Source of the DNA: a candidate division WWE3 bacterium
GTDB taxonomy: Bacteria; Patescibacteriota; WWE3; UBA101185; UBA10185
Length of the DNA stretch: 40,069 nucleotides
Assembly: GCA_012798115.1 (NCBI GenBank)
Contig: JAAZNV010000009.1
Coordinates: 74,156-114,224 of the forward strand
Reading direction: 5' to 3'
Shown here: positions 18,591 through 34,308 of the stretch, one piece after another
Layout: each line of letters starts with the position of its first letter
How positions within the stretch are numbered: the stretch's first letter is position 1
Notes under the pieces: generated by a model
What the model saw: the letters and a program-made list of their open reading frames with translations, nothing else
What the model was told of the DNA's origin: nothing
The model's database searches: none
Program-made: the position numbers and the translations under genes

Positions 18591-19073
18591 ATGCAGGTTA
18601 TTGCTAGAGATTCTAGATTATGGAACTATATCACACCTGAGATAAGGGATCTTATTGAAGATGGAGAAATAATTCTTAATTTTGTGCACGACAATAAACA
18701 CAGAGCAGAGATTTCTGATTTTTCTTTTATTGTGTTTCCCTTTGCAAAGGCTTATGAAGGATTTTTGAAAAGATTCTTTTTAGACTCTGGACTAATCACT
18801 GAAGATGAATACTTTGGGGATGAAATACGAATAGGGAGGTTATTAAATCCCAACTATGAAGATAACTCTAGTGTATATAAAAGGATTTGTAATAAACCAG
18901 GTGCAGGTAGAAATGTACCAGAAAGGTTATGGGGTGCATGGAAAAAAGGGAGAAACTTAGTGTTTCACTACTTTCCTAACAACTTTAGAAAGTTAAGTTA
19001 CGATGAGTCTTTAGATATCATAAATGATCTTATTAACGCTATGGCAGAAGTAGTGTCTGGTTGTATAAGTTAA
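18591..19073 (+). CDS. Small HEPN-like protein (possible RNase toxin fold)
   Basis: C-terminal helix with Rx4H motif (KKGRNLVFHYFP); all-helical composition; ATG at 18585 or 18591. Confidence 0.45.
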   Translation: MQVIARDSRLWNYITPEIRDLIEDGEIILNFVHDNKHRAEISDFSFIVFPFAKAYEGFLKRFFLDSGLITEDEYFGDEIRIGRLLNPNYEDNSSVYKRICNKPGAGRNVPERLWGAWKKGRNLVFHYFPNNFRKLSYDESLDIINDLINAMAEVVSGCIS

Positions 19074-21436
19074 TTTATGTTTGATACTTCAAATATAGAA
19101 TTAATTATGCGTCTTTTTAAAATACTTTTTTCTAGTGTATTGACTTTGATTGCATAACTTTGAGTATCTTCTATGTTGCCATTTACGTCCTGGGACTTGA
19201 AAAGTAAGTTAGTTACTCCTTCTTTTTGTACTAAAAATGGTTGTGAGTAAGTATCCCATGTTACTCCATTGTTTGTTGAATAAAATATATTCTCAATTTG
19301 GCTATTTTCTGCATCTGTAGAGGATAAATTTATAGTAGGGAATTCAATAAACCATCCATTATTGTTACTTCCTAACATATAAATTTCAGTTTTTGGAGGT
19401 TTGTTATCTATCATCTCTCCAAATACTGCAAACCAGCTTAAGTGATTAACCGTTGAAGTTAATACGTTTGTTTCTGCGTTAAATGAAGAAGGAATAATTT
19501 CCCAAACTTTTTGAAATTCATTCCAAAAGTAAAGTTGAATAGTATCTAAAAATAAATTTGAAAGTTGATCTTGACTAATTGAAATTTCCACTTGAATGAC
19601 ATCATTTAATAATTCTTGTTTATAACCTAACTGATCAAAAACTTCTAATAAAAAGGATGTTAGTTCTACATACTTGAATAAGTTTCGGGAAGAATAAATA
19701 GGAGAGATAGTTGGTCTAATATAGGGAGTGATTATTGCTGTTATATTTTCACTTGCATTTGCAAAGGTAATCTTTTTGTTTTTTGTGTTTAATTTACTTT
19801 CATCATTCGTTATAAATTTTGAAACATTTTCGTTTTCATTTTTCCATAAGTATATACTTTCAGTCCCTTGATGACTTCCAAGTAAATCATTCCATAAATA
19901 ATTTTTCCATGGATCCGCAATTTTATTATTTTGCCATCCAAATGGATCCACTCTTCCATCTGGATAATCATTAAGAAAATTGTCGTCTGTATTTACATCC
20001 TTCAAAACTTCAAAGTGAAGATGAGGGCCAGTCGTATTTCCTGTTATACCAACCTTTCCTATTATGTCATTATTATTCACCCAGATTTGACTGCTTTTTG
20101 TTATCAATCCTTCATTTTGAAGATGCATGTAGGTTGTTTGATAACCATTTAAATGATTAATTTTTATAGTATTTCCACAAGAATTGCAATAATAGTAACT
20201 AGCATAGCCAGATAGCGGTGCTCTTATTTCTGTTCCATATTTAAGTGCAAAATCTATTCCGCTGTGTGAACTGTAATAAACATATGGTTCTGTATTTCTT
20301 ATTCCAAGGAAATTTAATGTAGTTTCTTTTTCATTTTCAGATTCTGTGTGATACGTGTATCCTAAGAGTGGGTAGCTGTGATCAAAATATGAGGTAATGT
20401 TATCTAATAATTCGTCTGTGCTTTCATAATCCCACGGTATGTCAAAAATTGGTAGCTTTGAAAAACCTTCTTTTGGAATTTTATACTTGTAAATCCCATT
20501 GAGGTATACAGCAGAAAATATATAAAAAGAATCTGAGTATAACCATGTTAACTCATACGTTTTATCCATTTGCGGTGTGTCCAAATGTGTGTCTATCCAT
20601 GTATTTCCAAGGTCTGATGTGTAGTACACGGAATAATTTTGTTCTAAAGGATTTTCTCTTCCAACATAGTACTTGTTATTAAGATATGTGATGTTACCTA
20701 CAGCATAGTTTCCAAGGCTTTGTGATTTTTCCCATGTTTCTCCTTTATCCTTTGATATATAAAGACCATCAATCCCAGAAGACCCTGCAAAAATCACACT
20801 TCCGTTTATACAAAAAAACATTATTCCTTTGTTACTTAACTCTGTTACTTCTTCCCAAGTGTTTCCCTTATCTATACTCTTAAACACCTTATTTGAAGTA
20901 GAGGTGAATACAATATCTTCTGAACCTTCAATAGAATATATTTTTGTTCCGTCAATTCCATTCCCAATCTTTTGAATCCATGTTTGACCTTCATCCTGAG
21001 ATATATAAAGGCCAGCGTTTTCCTTTCCAAGGTATATTGTTTGTGAATCTCTTGTTACTTTAGTTGATGTTCCAAGAGGGCCTATTTGTTCCCATGTTTC
21101 TCCTTTATCGTTTGATACAAAAAGACCAGATTTATGATTTACTGAGTAGTATGTTGCTGCATATATTTTCCCTTGATAATATTTAATATCCTTCACACCC
21201 ATACCTGTTAAACCAAGCAAGACCCATGTGTTACCTAGATCTTTTGATAAGTAAATGCCGTTTGATTGTGTGGAACTAGAAAATTCTCCAGCTAATATTC
21301 CCCAAGGTGTTTGCTCTATGGATATCATCATTGGTGTTGGCGTGAAAGTTCTTGTCCATAATGATTCAGCATGTATTCTATTTATAGCTATTATAGATAA
21401 AAGTATAAATACAAAAAACTTTCCAATTTTCTTCAC
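19070..21436 (-). CDS. Secreted multidomain protein: BNR/Ycf48-like propeller repeats, M23 (LytM) peptidase domain, C-terminal Ig-like domain
   Basis: Signal peptide; repeated SKDKGETWE/SNDKGETWEQI motifs; HSGIDFALKYGTEIRAPLSG and GNTTGPHLHFEV; C-terminal NGVTWDTYSQPF...DVNGNIE. Confidence 0.8.
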   Translation of the reverse strand: MKKIGKFFVFILLSIIAINRIHAESLWTRTFTPTPMMISIEQTPWGILAGEFSSSTQSNGIYLSKDLGNTWVLLGLTGMGVKDIKYYQGKIYAATYYSVNHKSGLFVSNDKGETWEQIGPLGTSTKVTRDSQTIYLGKENAGLYISQDEGQTWIQKIGNGIDGTKIYSIEGSEDIVFTSTSNKVFKSIDKGNTWEEVTELSNKGIMFFCINGSVIFAGSSGIDGLYISKDKGETWEKSQSLGNYAVGNITYLNNKYYVGRENPLEQNYSVYYTSDLGNTWIDTHLDTPQMDKTYELTWLYSDSFYIFSAVYLNGIYKYKIPKEGFSKLPIFDIPWDYESTDELLDNITSYFDHSYPLLGYTYHTESENEKETTLNFLGIRNTEPYVYYSSHSGIDFALKYGTEIRAPLSGYASYYYCNSCGNTIKINHLNGYQTTYMHLQNEGLITKSSQIWVNNNDIIGKVGITGNTTGPHLHFEVLKDVNTDDNFLNDYPDGRVDPFGWQNNKIADPWKNYLWNDLLGSHQGTESIYLWKNENENVSKFITNDESKLNTKNKKITFANASENITAIITPYIRPTISPIYSSRNLFKYVELTSFLLEVFDQLGYKQELLNDVIQVEISISQDQLSNLFLDTIQLYFWNEFQKVWEIIPSSFNAETNVLTSTVNHLSWFAVFGEMIDNKPPKTEIYMLGSNNNGWFIEFPTINLSSTDAENSQIENIFYSTNNGVTWDTYSQPFLVQKEGVTNLLFKSQDVNGNIEDTQSYAIKVNTLEKSILKRRIINSIFEVSNIN

Positions 21437-21514: not shown

Positions 21515-22864
21515 GTGGATAATTTGATTAATAGAATTAAAAATAAAAATCCTGATCTTAGAAAAGCAGAGATAGAAGGACTGTTGTTTTTATTGAAAAA
21601 TAAATGCTCATTTACTAATCAAGATTTTATATCCTTAACTGGAATTCCTAAAGAAACTTTGAAGCAATTTAAAAAATCTATCTCCAGTTTACTAGAGGAA
21701 CCTAATGATAATTTAGTTTCATTAAGTATGGAGGGCAAAGAAGAATTAAGAAATGTTAAACTTAAACCATATAAGTGGTCTCTTTTATCAGTGAAATCCG
21801 GTCATAGTAAGTCACTAGAAAAGATATGTGAAATAAGGGACAAGTATGACATAAGACCTAGGAGGGAATATGATCAGTTTTTAGCTACTCCAGAGACCTC
21901 TTATGCAAAAGCACAAATACTTTTTGATAAAGGAGTAATAGATGGGAAGTCTATTGCATTTATTGGAGATGATGATTTGAACTCCTTAATGTTAGCTGCT
22001 TTATCTTTGGAAAGTGAAAACAGTGGTGATTATAAAAATATTACTGTGTTTGATATTGATCCTCAGGTATTAAATTCCATTGAAAGATCTTCAAAGGAGC
22101 TAGGACTAAAAAATATTGAAACAGTTCTTTATGATGTGAGAAATAAACTTGATAAAAAGTATTTAGGAAGGTTTGATGTTGTAGTTTTTGATCCTCCGTA
22201 TACAAGGAGTGGAGTGGTTTTGTTTCTTCAAAGGTCCATAGAACTTTTAGGAAATAGGTTAGAAAGCAATGGTAACTTTGAAGGCAAATATATTTTTATG
22301 TACTATGGAAATAGTTTCAAATCTCCAGAGAAGGTACTGAAGATTCAAGAAGTACTAAATAGATTTAATTTAGTGATAGAAGATAAGATTGAAAAGTTTG
22401 CAAGATATTCAGGAGCAGAATCCATTGGAAATGCTAGTTCTCTTTATGTGTTAAGGACCAATAGGTTTACTCACCTGGCAGATTTTAGCTCAATTAAAAT
22501 TTATACATATGAGGAACAGAAAGAAGAAAGGTTTCCTTTCGTGGATCATTTAGTTTTTAAGGTTTTTGGGGTTAAAAATGATCTATTAAAGTCAAAGGGT
22601 AAGATTTTAGGTGTGCTGGGAGAGCTTTGTATGATGCATAATCTTAAGGTTATGGATAAGAAAATTACTAGTTTTAAAGGTGGTGGCCTAACAATTACAT
22701 TTGTCTTAGCAAATTCTAATCTTGTTGTTCACACTTGGCCTGAATTTGGATCTGTTCATATTGATCTTATTACATGCTCTCCTATTTATAAAAAAGATCT
22801 TTTACCATCTACTATTGGAAGCTTGTTTGGAACAAGCAAGATAGAAACTACTTGTGTAGAATAG
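21515..22864 (+). CDS. Fusion: BpsA-like branched polyamine synthase (PF01861-like) plus SpeD-like pyruvoyl decarboxylase
   Basis: N-terminal wHTH, PRREYDQFLATPETSYAKA, GDDDL motif, FDIDPQVL, VVFDPPYT; C-terminal LANSNLVVHTWPEFGSVHIDLITCS resembles the SpeD self-processing region. Confidence 0.8.
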   Translation: MDNLINRIKNKNPDLRKAEIEGLLFLLKNKCSFTNQDFISLTGIPKETLKQFKKSISSLLEEPNDNLVSLSMEGKEELRNVKLKPYKWSLLSVKSGHSKSLEKICEIRDKYDIRPRREYDQFLATPETSYAKAQILFDKGVIDGKSIAFIGDDDLNSLMLAALSLESENSGDYKNITVFDIDPQVLNSIERSSKELGLKNIETVLYDVRNKLDKKYLGRFDVVVFDPPYTRSGVVLFLQRSIELLGNRLESNGNFEGKYIFMYYGNSFKSPEKVLKIQEVLNRFNLVIEDKIEKFARYSGAESIGNASSLYVLRTNRFTHLADFSSIKIYTYEEQKEERFPFVDHLVFKVFGVKNDLLKSKGKILGVLGELCMMHNLKVMDKKITSFKGGGLTITFVLANSNLVVHTWPEFGSVHIDLITCSPIYKKDLLPSTIGSLFGTSKIETTCVE

Positions 22865-22874
22865 GATCTTGTTG

Positions 22875-22903
22875 TTGACATTGCAGAAAGTTGTTGCTAT
22901 TTA
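22875..22903 (+). promoter_or_regulatory. Predicted 16S rRNA promoter (TTGACA, 17 nt, TATTTA)
   Basis: Consensus -35 with optimal spacing about 150-180 nt upstream of 16S; -10 is imperfect. Confidence 0.5.
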
Positions 22904-23052
22904 TTTAACACTGAAGTAATATTCAGATCTTGAACTTTGAAAATATCCTTTGAAGTTTTGTTTATTCAAGATTTATAAGGCGAAAAGAACGGGTGCTTTT
23001 GATGGACGTTCACTAACGCATTTGTGAATGTCTCTCATTAGCTTTGCTAGCT

Positions 23053-24480
<1,428 letters not shown>

Positions 24481-29249: not shown

Positions 29250-29975
29250 GATTTGGTTTAAGACCCTGCCTGGTAAAGTTTGCCAGTCAAAGTTTTAAAC
29301 AAAAGTTTAAAAGGTTCTTTGAAATCTGAACAGAAAGTCTTTCATCCATCGTTTATATGAGCGATGGAGACAATTTAGTTCAATTTCTCGGATGAATTAA
29401 AGTTATTAATGCATGTGGTGGATGCCTTGGGTATTCGTGACGATGAAGGAGGTGCAAGACTGCCTTAAGCTTCGAGGAGCTGTCAAGAAGCGTTATTACT
29501 CGGAGATTTCCGAATGGGGTAACCTGGTCTATCGCAAGATAAGATCACTTGTCACTAAAGCTTTTGCTTTGCAGAAGGATAGGTGACATAGAGCAAACTC
29601 AGCGAACTGAAACAACTTAGTAGCTGAAGGAAAAAAGACAATTTGTTATTCCCTTAGTAGCGGCGAGCGAAAGGGGAGGAGCCCAAACCCAGATTGTTTA
29701 TTGATGTGACGGTTTGATTTATCAGACTGTCTAATCTTTAAGCAAATAAATGGGGGTATGGAAAATCCATGTCTGCCTTGAGCAGAGAAGAGTTACAAAT
29801 TACTTTTGTAGAAGAAGACGCCTGGAAAGGCGCGTCATAGAGAGTAACAACCTCGTATTCAAAACAAAAGTAACTCTTTGGGTTTATCCTGAGTAGCACG
29901 GGACACGCGAAACCCTGTGTGAATGAGCGACGCCCACGTCGTAAGGCTAAATACACGAATACACCGATAGCGCAT

Positions 29976-30006
<31 letters not shown>

Positions 30007-31122
30007 TGTTAGGGGAGTGAAATAGATTCTGAAACCGCATGCAGACAAGCTTGTAAAGCTCGACTTGTTCGAGTGATACAGTGCTTATTGAAGAATGATC
30101 CAGCGAGTTAATACTGTAGGCAAGCTTAATCTGTGAAAGCAGAGGAGGCGTAGGGAAACCAAGTCTTAAAAGGGCGAATAGTTTACAGTATTAGACCCGA
30201 AGCCAAGTGAGCTAACCATGACCAGGGTGAAGTCTATCGAAAGATAGATGGAGGCCCGAACCGGTGTACGAGGAAAAGTGCTCGGATGAGTTGTGGTTAG
30301 TGGTGAAACGCCTATCAAACTTGGCGATAGCTGGTTCTCCCCGAAACATATCTAGGTATGACCTTTACGTTAAAGTCATTGAGGTAGAGATACTGGAAGG
30401 GGATGGGGGGCGCAAGCCTACCCACTCCTACCAAACTCCGAATGCGATGATGGTGCGTATGGAGTCAGTGTCATGGGGAAATCTCGTGGCACAAAAGGGT
30501 GACAACCCAGACCATCGGTTAAGGTCCCTAATTTTTGCTAAGTGGGCAAGGAAGTGAAATCGTTAAGACAGCTAGGAGGTTGGCTCAGAAGCAGCAATCC
30601 TTTAAAGAAAGCGTAACAGCTCACTAGTTAAACGATTTTGCGCCGACGATTTAACGGGGCTCAAGCAAAAAACCGACACCATGGCTTTGCACTTTGTGCA
30701 AGGGGTAGGGGAGCTTTGATGCAGCTGTGAAGGTTCACTGTGAGGTGGGCTGGAGCAACATCAAGTGAGTATGCTGGAATGAGTAACGAGATTCGCGTGA
30801 AAACCGCGAACGCCGTATGTCTAAGGTTTCCTCCGCCATGCCAGTCAGCGGAGGGTTAGTCGATCCTAAGGAAAGGCCGAAGGGCGTATCTGATGGATAG
30901 CAGGTTAATATTCCTGCACTATTGTATGATCGTTTTACCAATGGGGGGACGAAGTGTGACTGATCAAGCCTGATAAGGATTTAGGTTCCAAAAACAAGTT
31001 AGTTTGTGTAGGAAAATCCGCACAAGCGTTTTAACATGAGTTTAGGAAAAGTTCATCGCAAGGTGAACAATTTGGTTGGTTTATGTTTCCAGGAAAATCC
31101 TCTAGGGAGATTGTGCAATATT

Positions 31123-31153
<31 letters not shown>

Positions 31154-31427
31154 AAGTATACCTAGGCGTGCGAGAGAATGGTGGTTGAGGAACTAAGCAA
31201 ATTACATCCGTAACTTAGGGAAAAGGATGCCCTGTGAGCGCGAGCTTGCAGGGGGCACAGAAATGGCTCGGGCGGCTGTTTAACAAAAACACAGGTCTCT
31301 GCTAAACCAGTAATGGGAGGTATAGGGGCCGACGCGTGCCCAGTGTCCGTAGGTCAAGATCGGGGGTGACTAACCGCAAGGTTAGAGGCTTCTGATTCAA
31401 GCCCGGATGAACGGCAGCAGTAACTAT

Positions 31428-32151
31428 GAAACAAGTCGTAGTTCTAAAACTTGGCTATATGCTGGAAACTCTGGTCAGAATTTGTAGCTAGTTATTGAAA
31501 TATCACAATGTAAATTGTAGATTAATTTTAATGACTGAAAATGCTAACAATGCAGACAATCAGCAGGAAAGACTTTCGCAATTAGGTAATTACATAGCTG
31601 GTTTTGTAGATGGAGAAGGGAGCTTTAATGTTTCCTTGAGGAAGAAATCTGACTACAAAATAGGTTGGCAGGTAGTATTAAGTTTTAATGTTTCACAAAA
31701 AGATCCTACAGTTCTATATATAATAAAAGATCTTTTTAAGTGTGGAATTATTAAACAAAGGAAATGTGATAATCTTTTCTCCTACGATGTAACAAAACCA
31801 AGCGATATTATTACTAATATTTTACCTTTCTTTGATGAGTTTTCTTTTCTTTCTGAATCGAAGAAGAAAAATTATTTACTATTTAAAGAGATAGTGGGTA
31901 TTTCTTCTTTAAGACCTTTATGTCATTCAAACTTTCTAAAGATTTTAGATCTAAGAGAGAGAATAAATGAGGGGAAGGGAAGAAAGAGAAAATATACAAA
32001 GGAAAATATTATTGCGAAAGAATCCTCAGAGACTATACGCCAGGCTTCAATTAAAAATTGAAGATGATATAGTCCGACCTATGCAGCGATGCATAGAATC
32101 CGATAGAAATATTCGGATCAGCTTATTTATTTAAGCTTAGCAACAAATGTG
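31428..32151 (+). mobile_element. Group I intron 1, insertion site about L1917, with LAGLIDADG ORF
   Basis: 5' exon AACTAT pairs with IGS GTAGTT (31438-31443) ending in U-G; ends in G; P7-like GACTAT/ATAGTC; exon junction TAACTAT^AACTG matches the H69 sequence. Confidence 0.85.
31531..32061 (+). CDS. LAGLIDADG homing endonuclease (single motif) in intron 1
   Basis: LGNYIAGFVDGEGSFNVSLRKKSDYKIGWQVVLSFNVSQKD; ATG 31531 preferred over upstream TTG 31495. Confidence 0.88.
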   Translation: MTENANNADNQQERLSQLGNYIAGFVDGEGSFNVSLRKKSDYKIGWQVVLSFNVSQKDPTVLYIIKDLFKCGIIKQRKCDNLFSYDVTKPSDIITNILPFFDEFSFLSESKKKNYLLFKEIVGISSLRPLCHSNFLKILDLRERINEGKGRKRKYTKENIIAKESSETIRQASIKN

Positions 32152-32165
32152 AACTGTTCTATGGT

Positions 32166-32435
32166 AATTCGCGCCGCCATAGTAAAATTCGACTATATGC
32201 TGGGATCTCTGTAGTATCTGTAGCTAGTTATTTATATAACTGAAAATGCTTACAGTGCAGACAATCAGCAGGAAAGACCAATAATTTATTATTGGAATCC
32301 TCACTGACTATACGTCGAACATCTTAAAATTGTATTTAAGATGAAGAGATAGTCGCGTCTGCATGGCGACATGCAGGGAAAAGGTTATTAAAGGGAAATC
32401 TTTTTCAGAACCTTTATTAAAAGGCGAAGATAGCA
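32166..32435 (+). mobile_element. Group I intron 2, insertion site about L1931, ORF-less (3' boundary uncertain by a few nt)
   Basis: 5' exon CTATGGT (32159-32165) pairs with IGS GCCATAG (32176-32182) ending in U-G; core blocks shared with intron 1 (GACTATATGCTGG, GCAGACAATCAGCAGGAAAGAC, GACTATACG). Confidence 0.8.
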
Positions 32436-32920
32436 AGCGTAATCCCTTGCCGGGTAAGTTCCGGCCCGCACGAAACGCGTAACGATCTGAGCGCTCTCTT
32501 AACCACTAACTCGGTGAAATTGAACTACCGGTGAAGATGCCGGTTACTCATTGTTGGACAGAGAGACCCCGTGGAGCTTTACTGTAGCTTGGTATTGATG
32601 ATCGGTTTTAGTTGTGTAGTGTAGGAGGGAGTTTTGGACCCAACGGTTTGAAACGTCGATGAAACACCTCTCTGCTAATATCGAGAGTCTCACCATTTCG
32701 CATAACCTGCGAAAGGGACAATGCCTGGCGGGCAGTTTATCTGGGGCGGATTCCTGCTAAAAGGTAACGCAGGAGCTCAAAGGTTCCCTTAATGCCGATG
32801 GAAATGGCATTATAAGCGTAAAGGTATATGGGAGCTTGACTGCAAGACTTACAAGTCGAGCAGACACGAAAGTGGGACTTAGTGATCTTCCGAGTGCTTA
32901 GTGGTAGGCCCGGAACTTAT

Positions 32921-32951
<31 letters not shown>

Positions 32952-32994
32952 TATCTTACCCGAGCGTCCATAGCGGCGGTAAGGTTTGGCACCT

Positions 32995-33829
32995 TAGACA
33001 TAAATTAGGGGTGCTACGAAAGTAATTTCGTACCAAAAATTCGGCTAATAACGGTGAACTCCCTATTGATTTCGTATAATCTTCGGGTTACTATGAATTC
33101 AAGGAGAATACCGTGGGAAGCCTCACTGAAGAACAAAAATCTATACTAATAGGTAGTCTATTAGGTGATGGTACTCTTAGAAAAAAGAAGAACACACTTC
33201 TTGAGATAAACCACTCTTCTAAACAAAGAGAATATGTTTTTTGGCTCTGTTCTAAGTTTAGAGAATACGTTAGTACTCCTCCAAAGCTTAGAATAAATGG
33301 TTTGGGAAGAACTTCTTATAGATTCACAACTCAAAGTATATCTCATTTAAATGAATTCTATGAAAGTTTTTACCTTCTAAACGGCCAGAAAAAGTTACCA
33401 AATACTTTAGAGCTTGATAATCTAAGTTTAGCTGTTTGGTTTATGGATGATGGTTCAAGATCTCGAAACTCTGTGTACTTTAATACACAACAGTTTAACA
33501 AAAAAGATCAAGAAGTTCTTATTCAATTATTAAGAGAGATATTTAATCTAAAAGCTACTTTAAATAGAGATAAATGTTATTACAGGATACGTATCGCATG
33601 TGATTCAATGGATCATTTTAGTGATTTGGTATCACCATTTATTATAAAAAGTATGAGATACAAACTTCCGTGATGGCCCCGTATCGACTGATCCTGAGAG
33701 CGTAACTTACGCTCAATAACGGTGAGATAGAATTCTTCTATCAAACGCCGACTCCTACTCTTTAAATAAAGTGTTAAAGACAAGAGGAAGAAGATATAGT
33801 CAGTGCAACTAGAAATAGTTGGTTGTACG
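32995..33829 (+). mobile_element. Group I intron 3, insertion site about L2500, with LAGLIDADG ORF
   Basis: 5' exon GGCACCT pairs with IGS GGGTGCT (33009-33015); ends in G; exon junction GGCACCT^CGATGTCG is PTC sequence; GATATAGTC 3' core. Confidence 0.85.
33113..33673 (+). CDS. LAGLIDADG homing endonuclease (two motifs) in intron 3
   Basis: ILIGSLLGDGTLRKK and LAVWFMDDGSRSRN; GTG start with AAGGAG upstream. Confidence 0.88.
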   Translation: MGSLTEEQKSILIGSLLGDGTLRKKKNTLLEINHSSKQREYVFWLCSKFREYVSTPPKLRINGLGRTSYRFTTQSISHLNEFYESFYLLNGQKKLPNTLELDNLSLAVWFMDDGSRSRNSVYFNTQQFNKKDQEVLIQLLREIFNLKATLNRDKCYYRIRIACDSMDHFSDLVSPFIIKSMRYKLP

Positions 33830-34308
33830 CGATGTCGTCTCGTCATATCCTGGAGCTGGAGCAGGTTCCAAGGGTCCGGCTGTTCGCCGGTTAAAATGGC
33901 GCGTTAGATGGGTTCAGAACGTCGCAAGACAGTTCGGTCCATTTCCACAATGAGTGTAGAACTCTGATAGGGCTCATTCCTAGTACGAGAGGACCGGAAT
34001 GACATAACCTCTGGTGTGCCAGTTGTTTCGCCAGAAGCATCGCTGGGTAGCTATGTTGTGATTTGATAAGTGCTGAAAGCATATAAGCACGAAGCATACC
34101 TAAAAATTAGGGTTCATCCAATTTAATTGGACGCGACTCCTGGGAGAATACCAGGTCGATAGGCTGCGAGTGTAAGCACAGTAATGTGTTCAGCTGAGCA
34201 GTACTAATGTTAAGCGCACTTTAATTTATCTATATGGGTAAATTGAACTAGATAGACTTTCTGGTCAGGTTTTAGAGAATCACTTCTTTGAAAATTTATT
34301 GTGAGTAA

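What the first reader, a model, noticed from the sequence alone, without database searches (positions are those of the whole stretch)
21515..22864. Single-chain BpsA-SpeD polyamine enzyme with an altered pyruvoyl-site motif
The N-terminal two thirds matches the branched-chain polyamine synthase family (GDDD and DPPY motifs). The C-terminal approximately 110 aa matches the prokaryotic SpeD fold. Against the usual ISESH(L/I)xIHTWPE...FTC, this protein has LANSNLVVHTWPE...ITC: the presumptive pyruvoyl Ser, catalytic His and Cys are retained, but the Glu before and the His after the Ser are both Asn. Either dcSAM production is coupled to aminopropyl transfer in one chain, or the SpeD part has changed substrate, as reported for SpeD-derived arginine/ornithine decarboxylases.
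Basis: partly seen in the sequence, partly recalled or inferred. Interest (0 to 1): 0.68.

Follow-up and report, generated by a model that had tools for sequence, protein, structure and literature searches.

The report
Fused branched-polyamine synthase and SAM decarboxylase
A tiny bacterium of candidate division WWE3 makes one protein that joins two polyamine enzymes, one that prepares the building block and one that attaches it; the same fusion runs through most of the lineage and seems to be its only polyamine-making tool.

Summary
The ORF at 21515-22864 (449 aa, GTG start) is one open frame: BpsA_C (aa 114-318, E 2.4e-35) followed by AdoMet_dc/SpeD (aa 345-446, E 7e-16). The motif is N400-S401-N402...H406-TWPE...C421. 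It is not a frameshift or assembly artefact. Full-length fused homologues occur in 26 of 45 genomes of its class and in 24 species loci, mostly named candidate division WWE3. The fused SpeD domains form one clade (99/95). Related Patescibacteria (Shapirobacteria and others) keep bpsA and speD as overlapping separate genes, so the fusion joined an existing pair. N-S-N is the lineage's usual form. Ser401, Trp408, Phe387 and His415 are invariant in 25 sequences; His406, Pro409, Glu410 and Cys421 nearly so; the SpeD part is under purifying selection. Published diagnostics point away from ornithine or arginine decarboxylase. WWE3 genomes lack canonical SpeE and PLP ODC/ADC; this is the only SpeD in its genome. 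Best reading: a self-processing bifunctional enzyme that makes dcSAM and transfers its aminopropyl group to an imported polyamine. Activity and acceptor are untested. AdoMetDC-SpeE fusions are known; a BpsA-SpeD fusion was not found in the papers searched. The gene lies 189 bp upstream of the 16S rRNA gene, a conserved arrangement.

The parts
21515..22864 (+). bpsA-speD fusion gene, 449 aa, GTG start
21515..21853 (+). N-terminal helical region of the BpsA half (aa 1-113); aligns with the N-terminal domain of Thermococcus/Pyrococcus BpsA chains
   Evidence: profile alignment from position 1; secondary structure
21854..22468 (+). BpsA catalytic domain (Pfam BpsA_C, aa 114-318)
21965..21976 (+). 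GDDD motif (aa 151-154); D153/D154 correspond to Tk-BpsA Asp159/Asp160
22190..22204 (+). DPPYT motif (aa 226-230); D226 corresponds to Tk-BpsA Asp225; invariant in 27 of 27 aligned fused proteins
22499..22534 (+). junction/linker (aa 329-340, IYTYEEQKEERF): BpsA C-terminal IYT motif running into SpeD; the site of the bpsA stop/speD start overlap in unfused relatives
22547..22852 (+). SpeD (class 1b AdoMetDC-like) domain, Pfam AdoMet_dc, aa 345-446
22712..22720 (+). Asn400-Ser401-Asn402: inferred self-cleavage/pyruvoyl site; Ser401 invariant
22730..22744 (+). His406-Thr-Trp-Pro-Glu410 (equivalent of T. maritima His68 and the following TWPE)
22775..22777 (+). Cys421 (equivalent of T. maritima Cys83)
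19070..21436 (-). divergent neighbour: M23 peptidase / BNR-sortilin-repeat protein; homologue found near the fused gene in most WWE3 loci (context, not part of the enzyme)
23054..24479 (+). 16S rRNA gene 189 bp downstream of the stop, same strand; conserved neighbour (context)

Best explanation
It is a bifunctional polyamine enzyme of candidate division WWE3 (Patescibacteria). The C-terminal SpeD domain is a class 1b S-adenosylmethionine decarboxylase that cuts itself between Asn400 and Ser401. This leaves a 400-aa chain carrying the BpsA domain plus the SpeD beta part, and a 49-aa alpha chain with an N-terminal pyruvoyl group (inferred). It decarboxylates SAM to dcSAM (inferred). The N-terminal BpsA domain takes the aminopropyl group from dcSAM and transfers it to a polyamine acceptor (inferred). 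The acceptor is most likely spermidine or another polyamine taken from the host or environment, because WWE3 genomes lack the tested diamine and spermidine synthesis families; the product is then a branched or elongated polyamine. The fusion arose once in this lineage by in-frame joining of an overlapping bpsA-speD gene pair still seen in relatives (supported by comparison). The Glu/Gln-to-Asn and His-to-Asn changes next to the pyruvoyl Ser came in steps in the fused clade and are probably tolerated variants of an AdoMetDC rather than a substrate switch (inferred).
For: Domains and folds. Lineage-wide intact fusion: 26 of 45 class genomes, 24 loci. One clade for fused SpeD domains, 99/95, inside a clade of BpsA-adjacent SpeDs. 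Residues in 25 fused WWE3-type sequences: S401 25, T407 25, W408 25, F387 25, H415 25, H406 24, C421 24, E410 24, P409 23; BpsA G151, D153, D154, D226-PPYT, Y298 all 25; these map to Tk-BpsA Asp159, Asp160, Asp225 and Tyr290. SpeD part dN 0.05-0.08 against dS 0.7-1.8 between close species. Only SpeD in the genome. Family-wide absence of Spermine_synt_N (0/27), PLP ODC/ADC folds (0/27 each) and arginase/agmatinase (1/27). Unfused relatives with overlapping bpsA-speD pairs. Known functional AdoMetDC-aminopropyltransferase fusions (PMC11107197; PMC12803844).
Against: No experimentally validated AdoMetDC with Asn-Ser-Asn was found; the validated enzymes read here (T. maritima, phages S-PM2 and phiYS40) all have Glu-Ser-His. 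One fused member has Arg for His406 (L009/L048), one has Phe for Cys421 (L027/L060) and one has HTWYK (L015/L052), so a few may have lost activity. The flexible acidic C-terminal tail that carries the aminopropyl group in Tk-BpsA (PMC12979288) has no clear counterpart: the WWE3 linker is often acidic but its acidic positions are not kept in every member. Tk-BpsA Glu259, an acceptor-side residue, falls on Phe268 in a weak stretch of the alignment, so the acceptor may differ. Most WWE3 genomes lack a SAM synthetase, so SAM must be imported. Homospermidine synthase and polyamine transporters were not searched.
Confidence: 0.72

Rival explanations
1. The SpeD domain keeps its fold but is no longer a decarboxylase. 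It serves as a dimerisation or regulatory module for the BpsA domain, as the SpeD-derived domain of animal spermine synthase does.
For: Animal spermine synthase is a precedent (PMC12803844). The residues next to the pyruvoyl Ser are changed, and three members lack His406, Cys421 or the PE of HTWPE.
Against: Ser401 is invariant, His406 and Cys421 are each kept in 24 of 25, and the SpeD part is under at least as strong purifying selection as the BpsA part in the close pairs. Loss would leave the genome without dcSAM, since no other SpeD exists.
Confidence: 0.12
2. The SpeD domain was neofunctionalised into a pyruvoyl-dependent ornithine or arginine decarboxylase, feeding putrescine or agmatine to the pathway.
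For: SpeD-derived ODC/ADC are common, including in the candidate phyla radiation (PMC10407285). WWE3 lacks PLP ODC/ADC. Both flanking residues have changed.
Against: The Pro characteristic of AdoMetDC against ADC is kept in 23 of 25. None of Gln/Thr/Phe/Tyr is present at the positions where I locate the ODC diagnostics on solo phylum members L133 and L134 (here Phe396, Asn400, Trp408, His415). The domain does not group with those sequences. No agmatinase in 26 of 27 genomes. The BpsA half would then have no dcSAM source.
Confidence: 0.07
3. Both domains are active, but the product is an ordinary linear polyamine: the BpsA half has become the sole aminopropyltransferase and makes spermidine or thermospermine from an imported diamine or triamine. 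(A sub-case of the best explanation as to mechanism; it differs in acceptor and product.)
For: No canonical SpeE in the family. Record titles of relatives suggest groundwater, sediment and sludge rather than hot springs, whereas branched polyamines are known mainly from thermophiles (PMC12979288). Acceptor-side Glu259 and the acidic tail of Tk-BpsA are not evident.
Against: The overall best match is BpsA, with Asp225 and Tyr290 equivalents invariant.
Confidence: 0.2
4. A frameshift, mis-assembly or chance fusion in this one genome.
For: None found.
Against: Intact fused frames in 26 of 45 class genomes, including complete or near-complete single contigs (L046 CP006914, L041 MEWB01000001).
Confidence: 0.01

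Closest known systems
BpsA, N4-bis(aminopropyl)spermidine synthase (Thermococcus kodakarensis, Thermus thermophilus; PDB 5xnc, 6j27)
   Same: N-terminal two thirds: best sequence and fold match; GDDD, DPP and the Tyr290 equivalent conserved
   Different: Fused to SpeD at its C-terminus; DPPYT instead of DPPET; no clear acidic C-terminal carrier tail; lineage not thermophilic as far as known
Class 1b S-adenosylmethionine decarboxylase, SpeD (Thermotoga maritima TM0655, PDB 1tlu/1vr7)
   Same: Fold (2.0 A over 105 columns); Ser, His, Cys and TWPE at the same spacing
   Different: Asn-Ser-Asn instead of Glu-Ser-His; His at position 415 where T. maritima has Ala; carried as the C-terminal domain of an aminopropyltransferase
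AdoMetDC-aminopropyltransferase fusions (Ca. Pelagibacter; a delta-proteobacterium and a Ca. Krumholzibacteria bacterium; ancestor of animal spermine synthase)
   Same: dcSAM maker and aminopropyl transferer in one chain; shown to be functional (PMC11107197, PMC12803844)
   Different: There the SpeD domain is N-terminal and the partner is of the SpeE family; here SpeD is C-terminal and the partner is BpsA
SpeD-SpeDC fusions and SpeDA/SpeDC (pyruvoyl ADC/ODC; PMC10407285)
   Same: SpeD fold and pyruvoyl chemistry; present in candidate phyla radiation bacteria
   Different: ODC diagnostic residues absent, AdoMetDC Pro kept, different partner domain
Erysipelothrix BpsA-SpeD fusions (L067, L071)
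   Same: Same domain order in one open frame
   Different: 23-25% identity; SpeD with canonical Glu-Ser-His; separate branch of the SpeD tree, so an independent fusion

Membership tests
BpsA (branched-chain polyamine synthase) | Pfam BpsA_C above the curated cut-off | tested here: met
   122.4 bits against a cut-off of 27
BpsA (branched-chain polyamine synthase) | GDDD with Asp159/Asp160, plus Asp225 and Tyr290 equivalents | tested here: met
   D153, D154, D226 and Y298 invariant (residue roles from PMC12979288)
BpsA (branched-chain polyamine synthase) | Flexible acidic C-terminal aminopropyl-carrier cluster (Tk-BpsA Glu339-Glu345) | tested here: inconclusive
   No alignable tail. The linker to SpeD is acidic in most members but its acidic positions are not conserved in all; several unfused CPR BpsAs end at the IYT motif
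BpsA (branched-chain polyamine synthase) | Aminopropyl transfer from dcSAM to spermidine to give N4-branched product | not testable with these tools
   Needs enzyme assay and LC-MS
Class 1b AdoMetDC (SpeD) | Pfam AdoMet_dc above the curated cut-off | tested here: met
   58.9 bits against 25. The NCBIfam equivalog TIGR03330 scores 49.7 against 75.65, so it is not an equivalog by that rule
Class 1b AdoMetDC (SpeD) | Pyruvoyl Ser63, His68 and Cys83 equivalents | tested here: met
   S401, H406, C421
Class 1b AdoMetDC (SpeD) | Glu-Ser-His around the pyruvoyl serine | tested here: not met
   Asn-Ser-Asn here; Asn/Ser/Thr/Gln/Ala before and Asn/Ser/His after in the fused clade. Common but not listed among the essential residues in PMC10407285, so I do not treat it as defining
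Class 1b AdoMetDC (SpeD) | Self-cleavage and SAM decarboxylation | not testable with these tools
   Needs expression
SpeDC (pyruvoyl ODC) | Four diagnostic residues Gln, Thr, Phe, Tyr | tested here: not met
   Phe396, Asn400, Trp408, His415 at the positions where solo homologues L133/L134 carry Q, T, F, Y. I assigned the positions from those sequences because the paper's Figure 8 is not held
SpeDA (pyruvoyl ADC) | Loss of the Pro conserved in AdoMetDC | tested here: not met
   Pro409 present here and in 23 of 25. The exact position is inferred from HTWPE; phiYS40, reported as a bona fide AdoMetDC, reads HYWID, so the rule has an exception
AdoMetDC-aminopropyltransferase (SpeE) fusions | Partner domain of the Spermine_synth family | tested here: not met
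   No Spermine_synth match in the protein; the partner is BpsA_C

The most novel reading that the evidence does not exclude
In WWE3 the fused enzyme is the cell's only polyamine synthase. It converts scavenged SAM and scavenged host polyamine into a branched polyamine made for the ribosome, with its gene kept next to the rRNA operon so that both are expressed together. In the most extreme form the acceptor is not a free polyamine at all but rRNA or a ribosomal component.
Probability: 0.07. Interest if true: 0.8.

Novelty: new variant of a known kind. Interest (0 to 1): 0.5.

Why it matters
If both halves work, this adds a second kind of aminopropyltransferase, of a different family from SpeE, to the known AdoMetDC fusions, with the domains in the opposite order. 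It would tie a branched-polyamine-type enzyme to an ultra-small, probably host-dependent bacterial lineage, where it appears to be the only polyamine-synthesising enzyme kept. It also gives a natural test of whether the Glu and His flanking the pyruvoyl serine are needed, and it marks WWE3 as a group in which to look for branched polyamines outside thermophiles.

Tried and rejected
Frameshift or artefact: rejected, intact fused frames across the class. Second SpeD elsewhere in the genome that would free this one for another role: none. SpeE in the WWE3 genomes: Spermine_synth gives only weak hits (best 19-53 bits), the one in this genome being a 230-aa ORF far below the SpeE equivalog cut-off (25 against 250 bits) and lacking the N-terminal domain, so I do not count it as SpeE. 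Phage search for the validated SpeDA/SpeDC proteins: the rows listed were AdoMetDC-type records, so ODC-like controls were taken from solo Patescibacteria genes by motif. Literature for T. maritima AdoMetDC substrate residues: nothing held. Search for papers on a BpsA-SpeD fusion or WWE3 polyamines: none found. Promoter and terminator scan: no more promoter-like sites than shuffles. Plasmid search: no fused homologue. In the tree, L143 was labelled 'fused' by my script in error; it is a 125-aa solo SpeD, and without it the fused group is one clade.

Full report
WHAT IS THERE. The window lies in a 0.76-Mb genome (14 contigs, 95% complete). The closest named relatives of the gene are Patescibacteria records, most of them called candidate division WWE3. 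ORF 21515-22864 (+) is a single open frame of 449 codons from a GTG. Pfam finds BpsA_C at aa 114-318 and AdoMet_dc at aa 345-446. An AlphaFold model built with 27 fused homologues (mean pLDDT 84, pTM 0.62) matches BpsA crystal structures best over its length and, at the C-terminus, T. maritima AdoMetDC (TM 0.79 of target, 2.0 A). The orientation of the two domains is not reliable: the linker, aa 337-341, has pLDDT below 50.

NOT AN ARTEFACT. Searching 57 related genomes with the protein gave fused matches at 37-61% identity in the same family and in two further families of the class, all but one over the full length. A class-wide profile search finds the fused frame in 26 of 45 genomes: 23 of 27 in the window's own family plus three others. 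Public contigs give 24 species-level loci, including a complete chromosome (CP006914, WWE3 RAAC2). In close pairs both halves evolve under purifying selection; the SpeD half has dN 0.05-0.08 against dS 0.7-1.8, the synonymous values being near saturation.

ORIGIN OF THE FUSION. Shapirobacteria and several other Patescibacteria have bpsA and speD as two genes. In four Shapirobacteria the bpsA stop and speD start overlap in the string ATGACTAA, reading ...Y-T-N-D-stop in one frame and M-T-N-F-P-F-F-Q-H in another. The WWE3 junction reads IYTYEEQKEERFPFVDH: the BpsA end and the SpeD start in one frame with a short linker between them. On a tree of 81 SpeD domains (103 columns; many forks unresolved) the fused domains form one clade (99/95), inside a wider clade of BpsA-adjacent Patescibacteria SpeDs (97/92). 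Solo SpeDs with ODC-like residues lie elsewhere. One WWE3 genome, G022, has both a fused copy and an overlapping separate pair (L031). Erysipelothrix carries an independent fusion with an ordinary Glu-Ser-His site (L067, L071).

THE ALTERED MOTIF. In 25 fused WWE3-type proteins the residue before the pyruvoyl Ser is Asn 18, Ser 3, Thr 2, Gln 1, Ala 1; the residue after it is Asn 23, Ser 1, His 1. The earliest-branching fused member (L026/L059) reads Asn-Ser-His, and the unfused relatives mostly Gln/Glu-Ser-His. This suggests that the first position changed before the second, within or at the base of the fused clade. The residues named as essential for processing and catalysis in T. maritima, Ser63, His68 and Cys83 (PMC10407285), correspond to Ser401 (25 of 25), His406 (24) and Cys421 (24). 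From my own knowledge, not tested here: E. coli class 1a AdoMetDC has Lys before the Ser and human AdoMetDC has Ser after it, so neither flanking residue is universal. The validated enzymes read here all have Glu-Ser-His, so the effect of Asn-Ser-Asn remains open.

SUBSTRATE. The 2023 study of SpeD-derived decarboxylases gives four diagnostic residues for ODCs (Gln, Thr, Phe, Tyr) and says that a Pro conserved in AdoMetDCs is not kept in ADCs. Its figure is not held, so I placed the four positions on solo Patescibacteria proteins that carry all four (L133, L134). The WWE3 protein has Phe396, Asn400, Trp408 and His415 there, and keeps HTWPE. The Pro rule is not perfect: phage phiYS40, reported as a bona fide AdoMetDC (PMC9992855), reads HYWID. 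The metabolic argument is stronger. BpsA needs dcSAM and this is the only SpeD in the genome.

BpsA HALF. Residues assigned to dcSAM positioning and acceptor activation in T. kodakarensis BpsA (Asp159, Asp160, Asp225, Tyr290; PMC12979288) correspond to Asp153, Asp154, Asp226 and Tyr298, all invariant. Glu259 falls on Phe268 in a weak stretch of the alignment. The flexible acidic tail said to carry the aminopropyl group has no clear counterpart. The WWE3 stretch aa 314-343 is acidic in most members, but acidic residues just after the IYT motif are reduced or missing in L055-L060, so a carrier role for the linker is only an idea.

METABOLIC SETTING. In 27 genomes of the family there is no PF02784 or PF01276 decarboxylase, no Spermine_synt_N, one arginase/agmatinase, no bacterial SAM synthetase, and an archaeal-type SAM synthetase only in the window's own genome. 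The fused enzyme therefore probably works on imported polyamine, and in most relatives on imported SAM. Homospermidine synthase and transporters were not searched.

GENOMIC SETTING. The gene is followed on the same strand by the 16S rRNA gene (189 bp here). The same holds in 18 of 21 fused relatives tested, at distances of 165 bp to 2.4 kb, with a median of 299 bp over 19 loci including the window. Of the three without it (L043, L058, L060), the L043 contig ends about 0.5 kb past the gene. A divergent M23-peptidase gene upstream is also conserved. Whether the rRNA linkage is functional is unknown.

VERDICT. A real, lineage-wide, single-origin BpsA-SpeD fusion, most likely a bifunctional AdoMetDC and aminopropyltransferase. 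Fusions of AdoMetDC to SpeE-type enzymes are known and functional (PMC11107197, PMC12803844). A fusion to BpsA was not mentioned in any paper found in the open-access library searched, which does not cover most subscription journals. Shown: architecture, conservation, distribution, relation to an overlapping gene pair, absence of the listed pathway genes. Inferred: self-cleavage, both activities, acceptor, product and physiological role.

Noticed in passing
window 22864-24479; L038-L042, L045-L048, L050, L052-L057, L059, L084: bpsA-speD sits directly upstream of the 16S rRNA gene on the same strand in the window and in 18 of 21 fused relatives tested; no explanation for the linkage.
   Followed up: partly
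window 29396-34227: The 23S rRNA gene spans 4.8 kb and contains a group I intron (32122-32376) and two LAGLIDADG ORFs (31495-32061, 33113-33673); some relatives have group I introns in or near the 16S gene (L038, L055, L056).
   Followed up: partly
L155 1477-2700 (G000:C4): The window's genome carries an archaeal-type SAM synthetase (PF01941, E 1.8e-107), alone among 27 genomes of its family, next to a reverse transcriptase gene; horizontal transfer or a contaminating contig not tested.
   Followed up: partly
L125 1408-2757 (G015): A WWE3 genome with the fused gene also has a solo SpeD reading ESHISIHTFTRRK, convergent with an agmatinase gene: a likely SpeD-derived arginine decarboxylase with its partner. 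The fused copy in the same genome has lost the PE of HTWPE (HTWYK).
   Followed up: partly
L074, L076-L078, L080-L082, L085-L088, L094, L099, L101: Streptomyces and relatives have a BpsA-like ORF divergent from a SpeD-like gene that reads ASH and lacks the catalytic Cys (LLAYG); possibly another SpeD variant.
   Followed up: no
L030, L033, L035: Unfused Patescibacteria SpeDs in genomes with bpsA lack the Cys at the position of T. maritima Cys83.
   Followed up: no
L122 1809-2501 (G000:C13): A 230-aa SpeE-like protein without the SpeE N-terminal domain, with similar weak hits in most family genomes; function unknown.
   Followed up: partly
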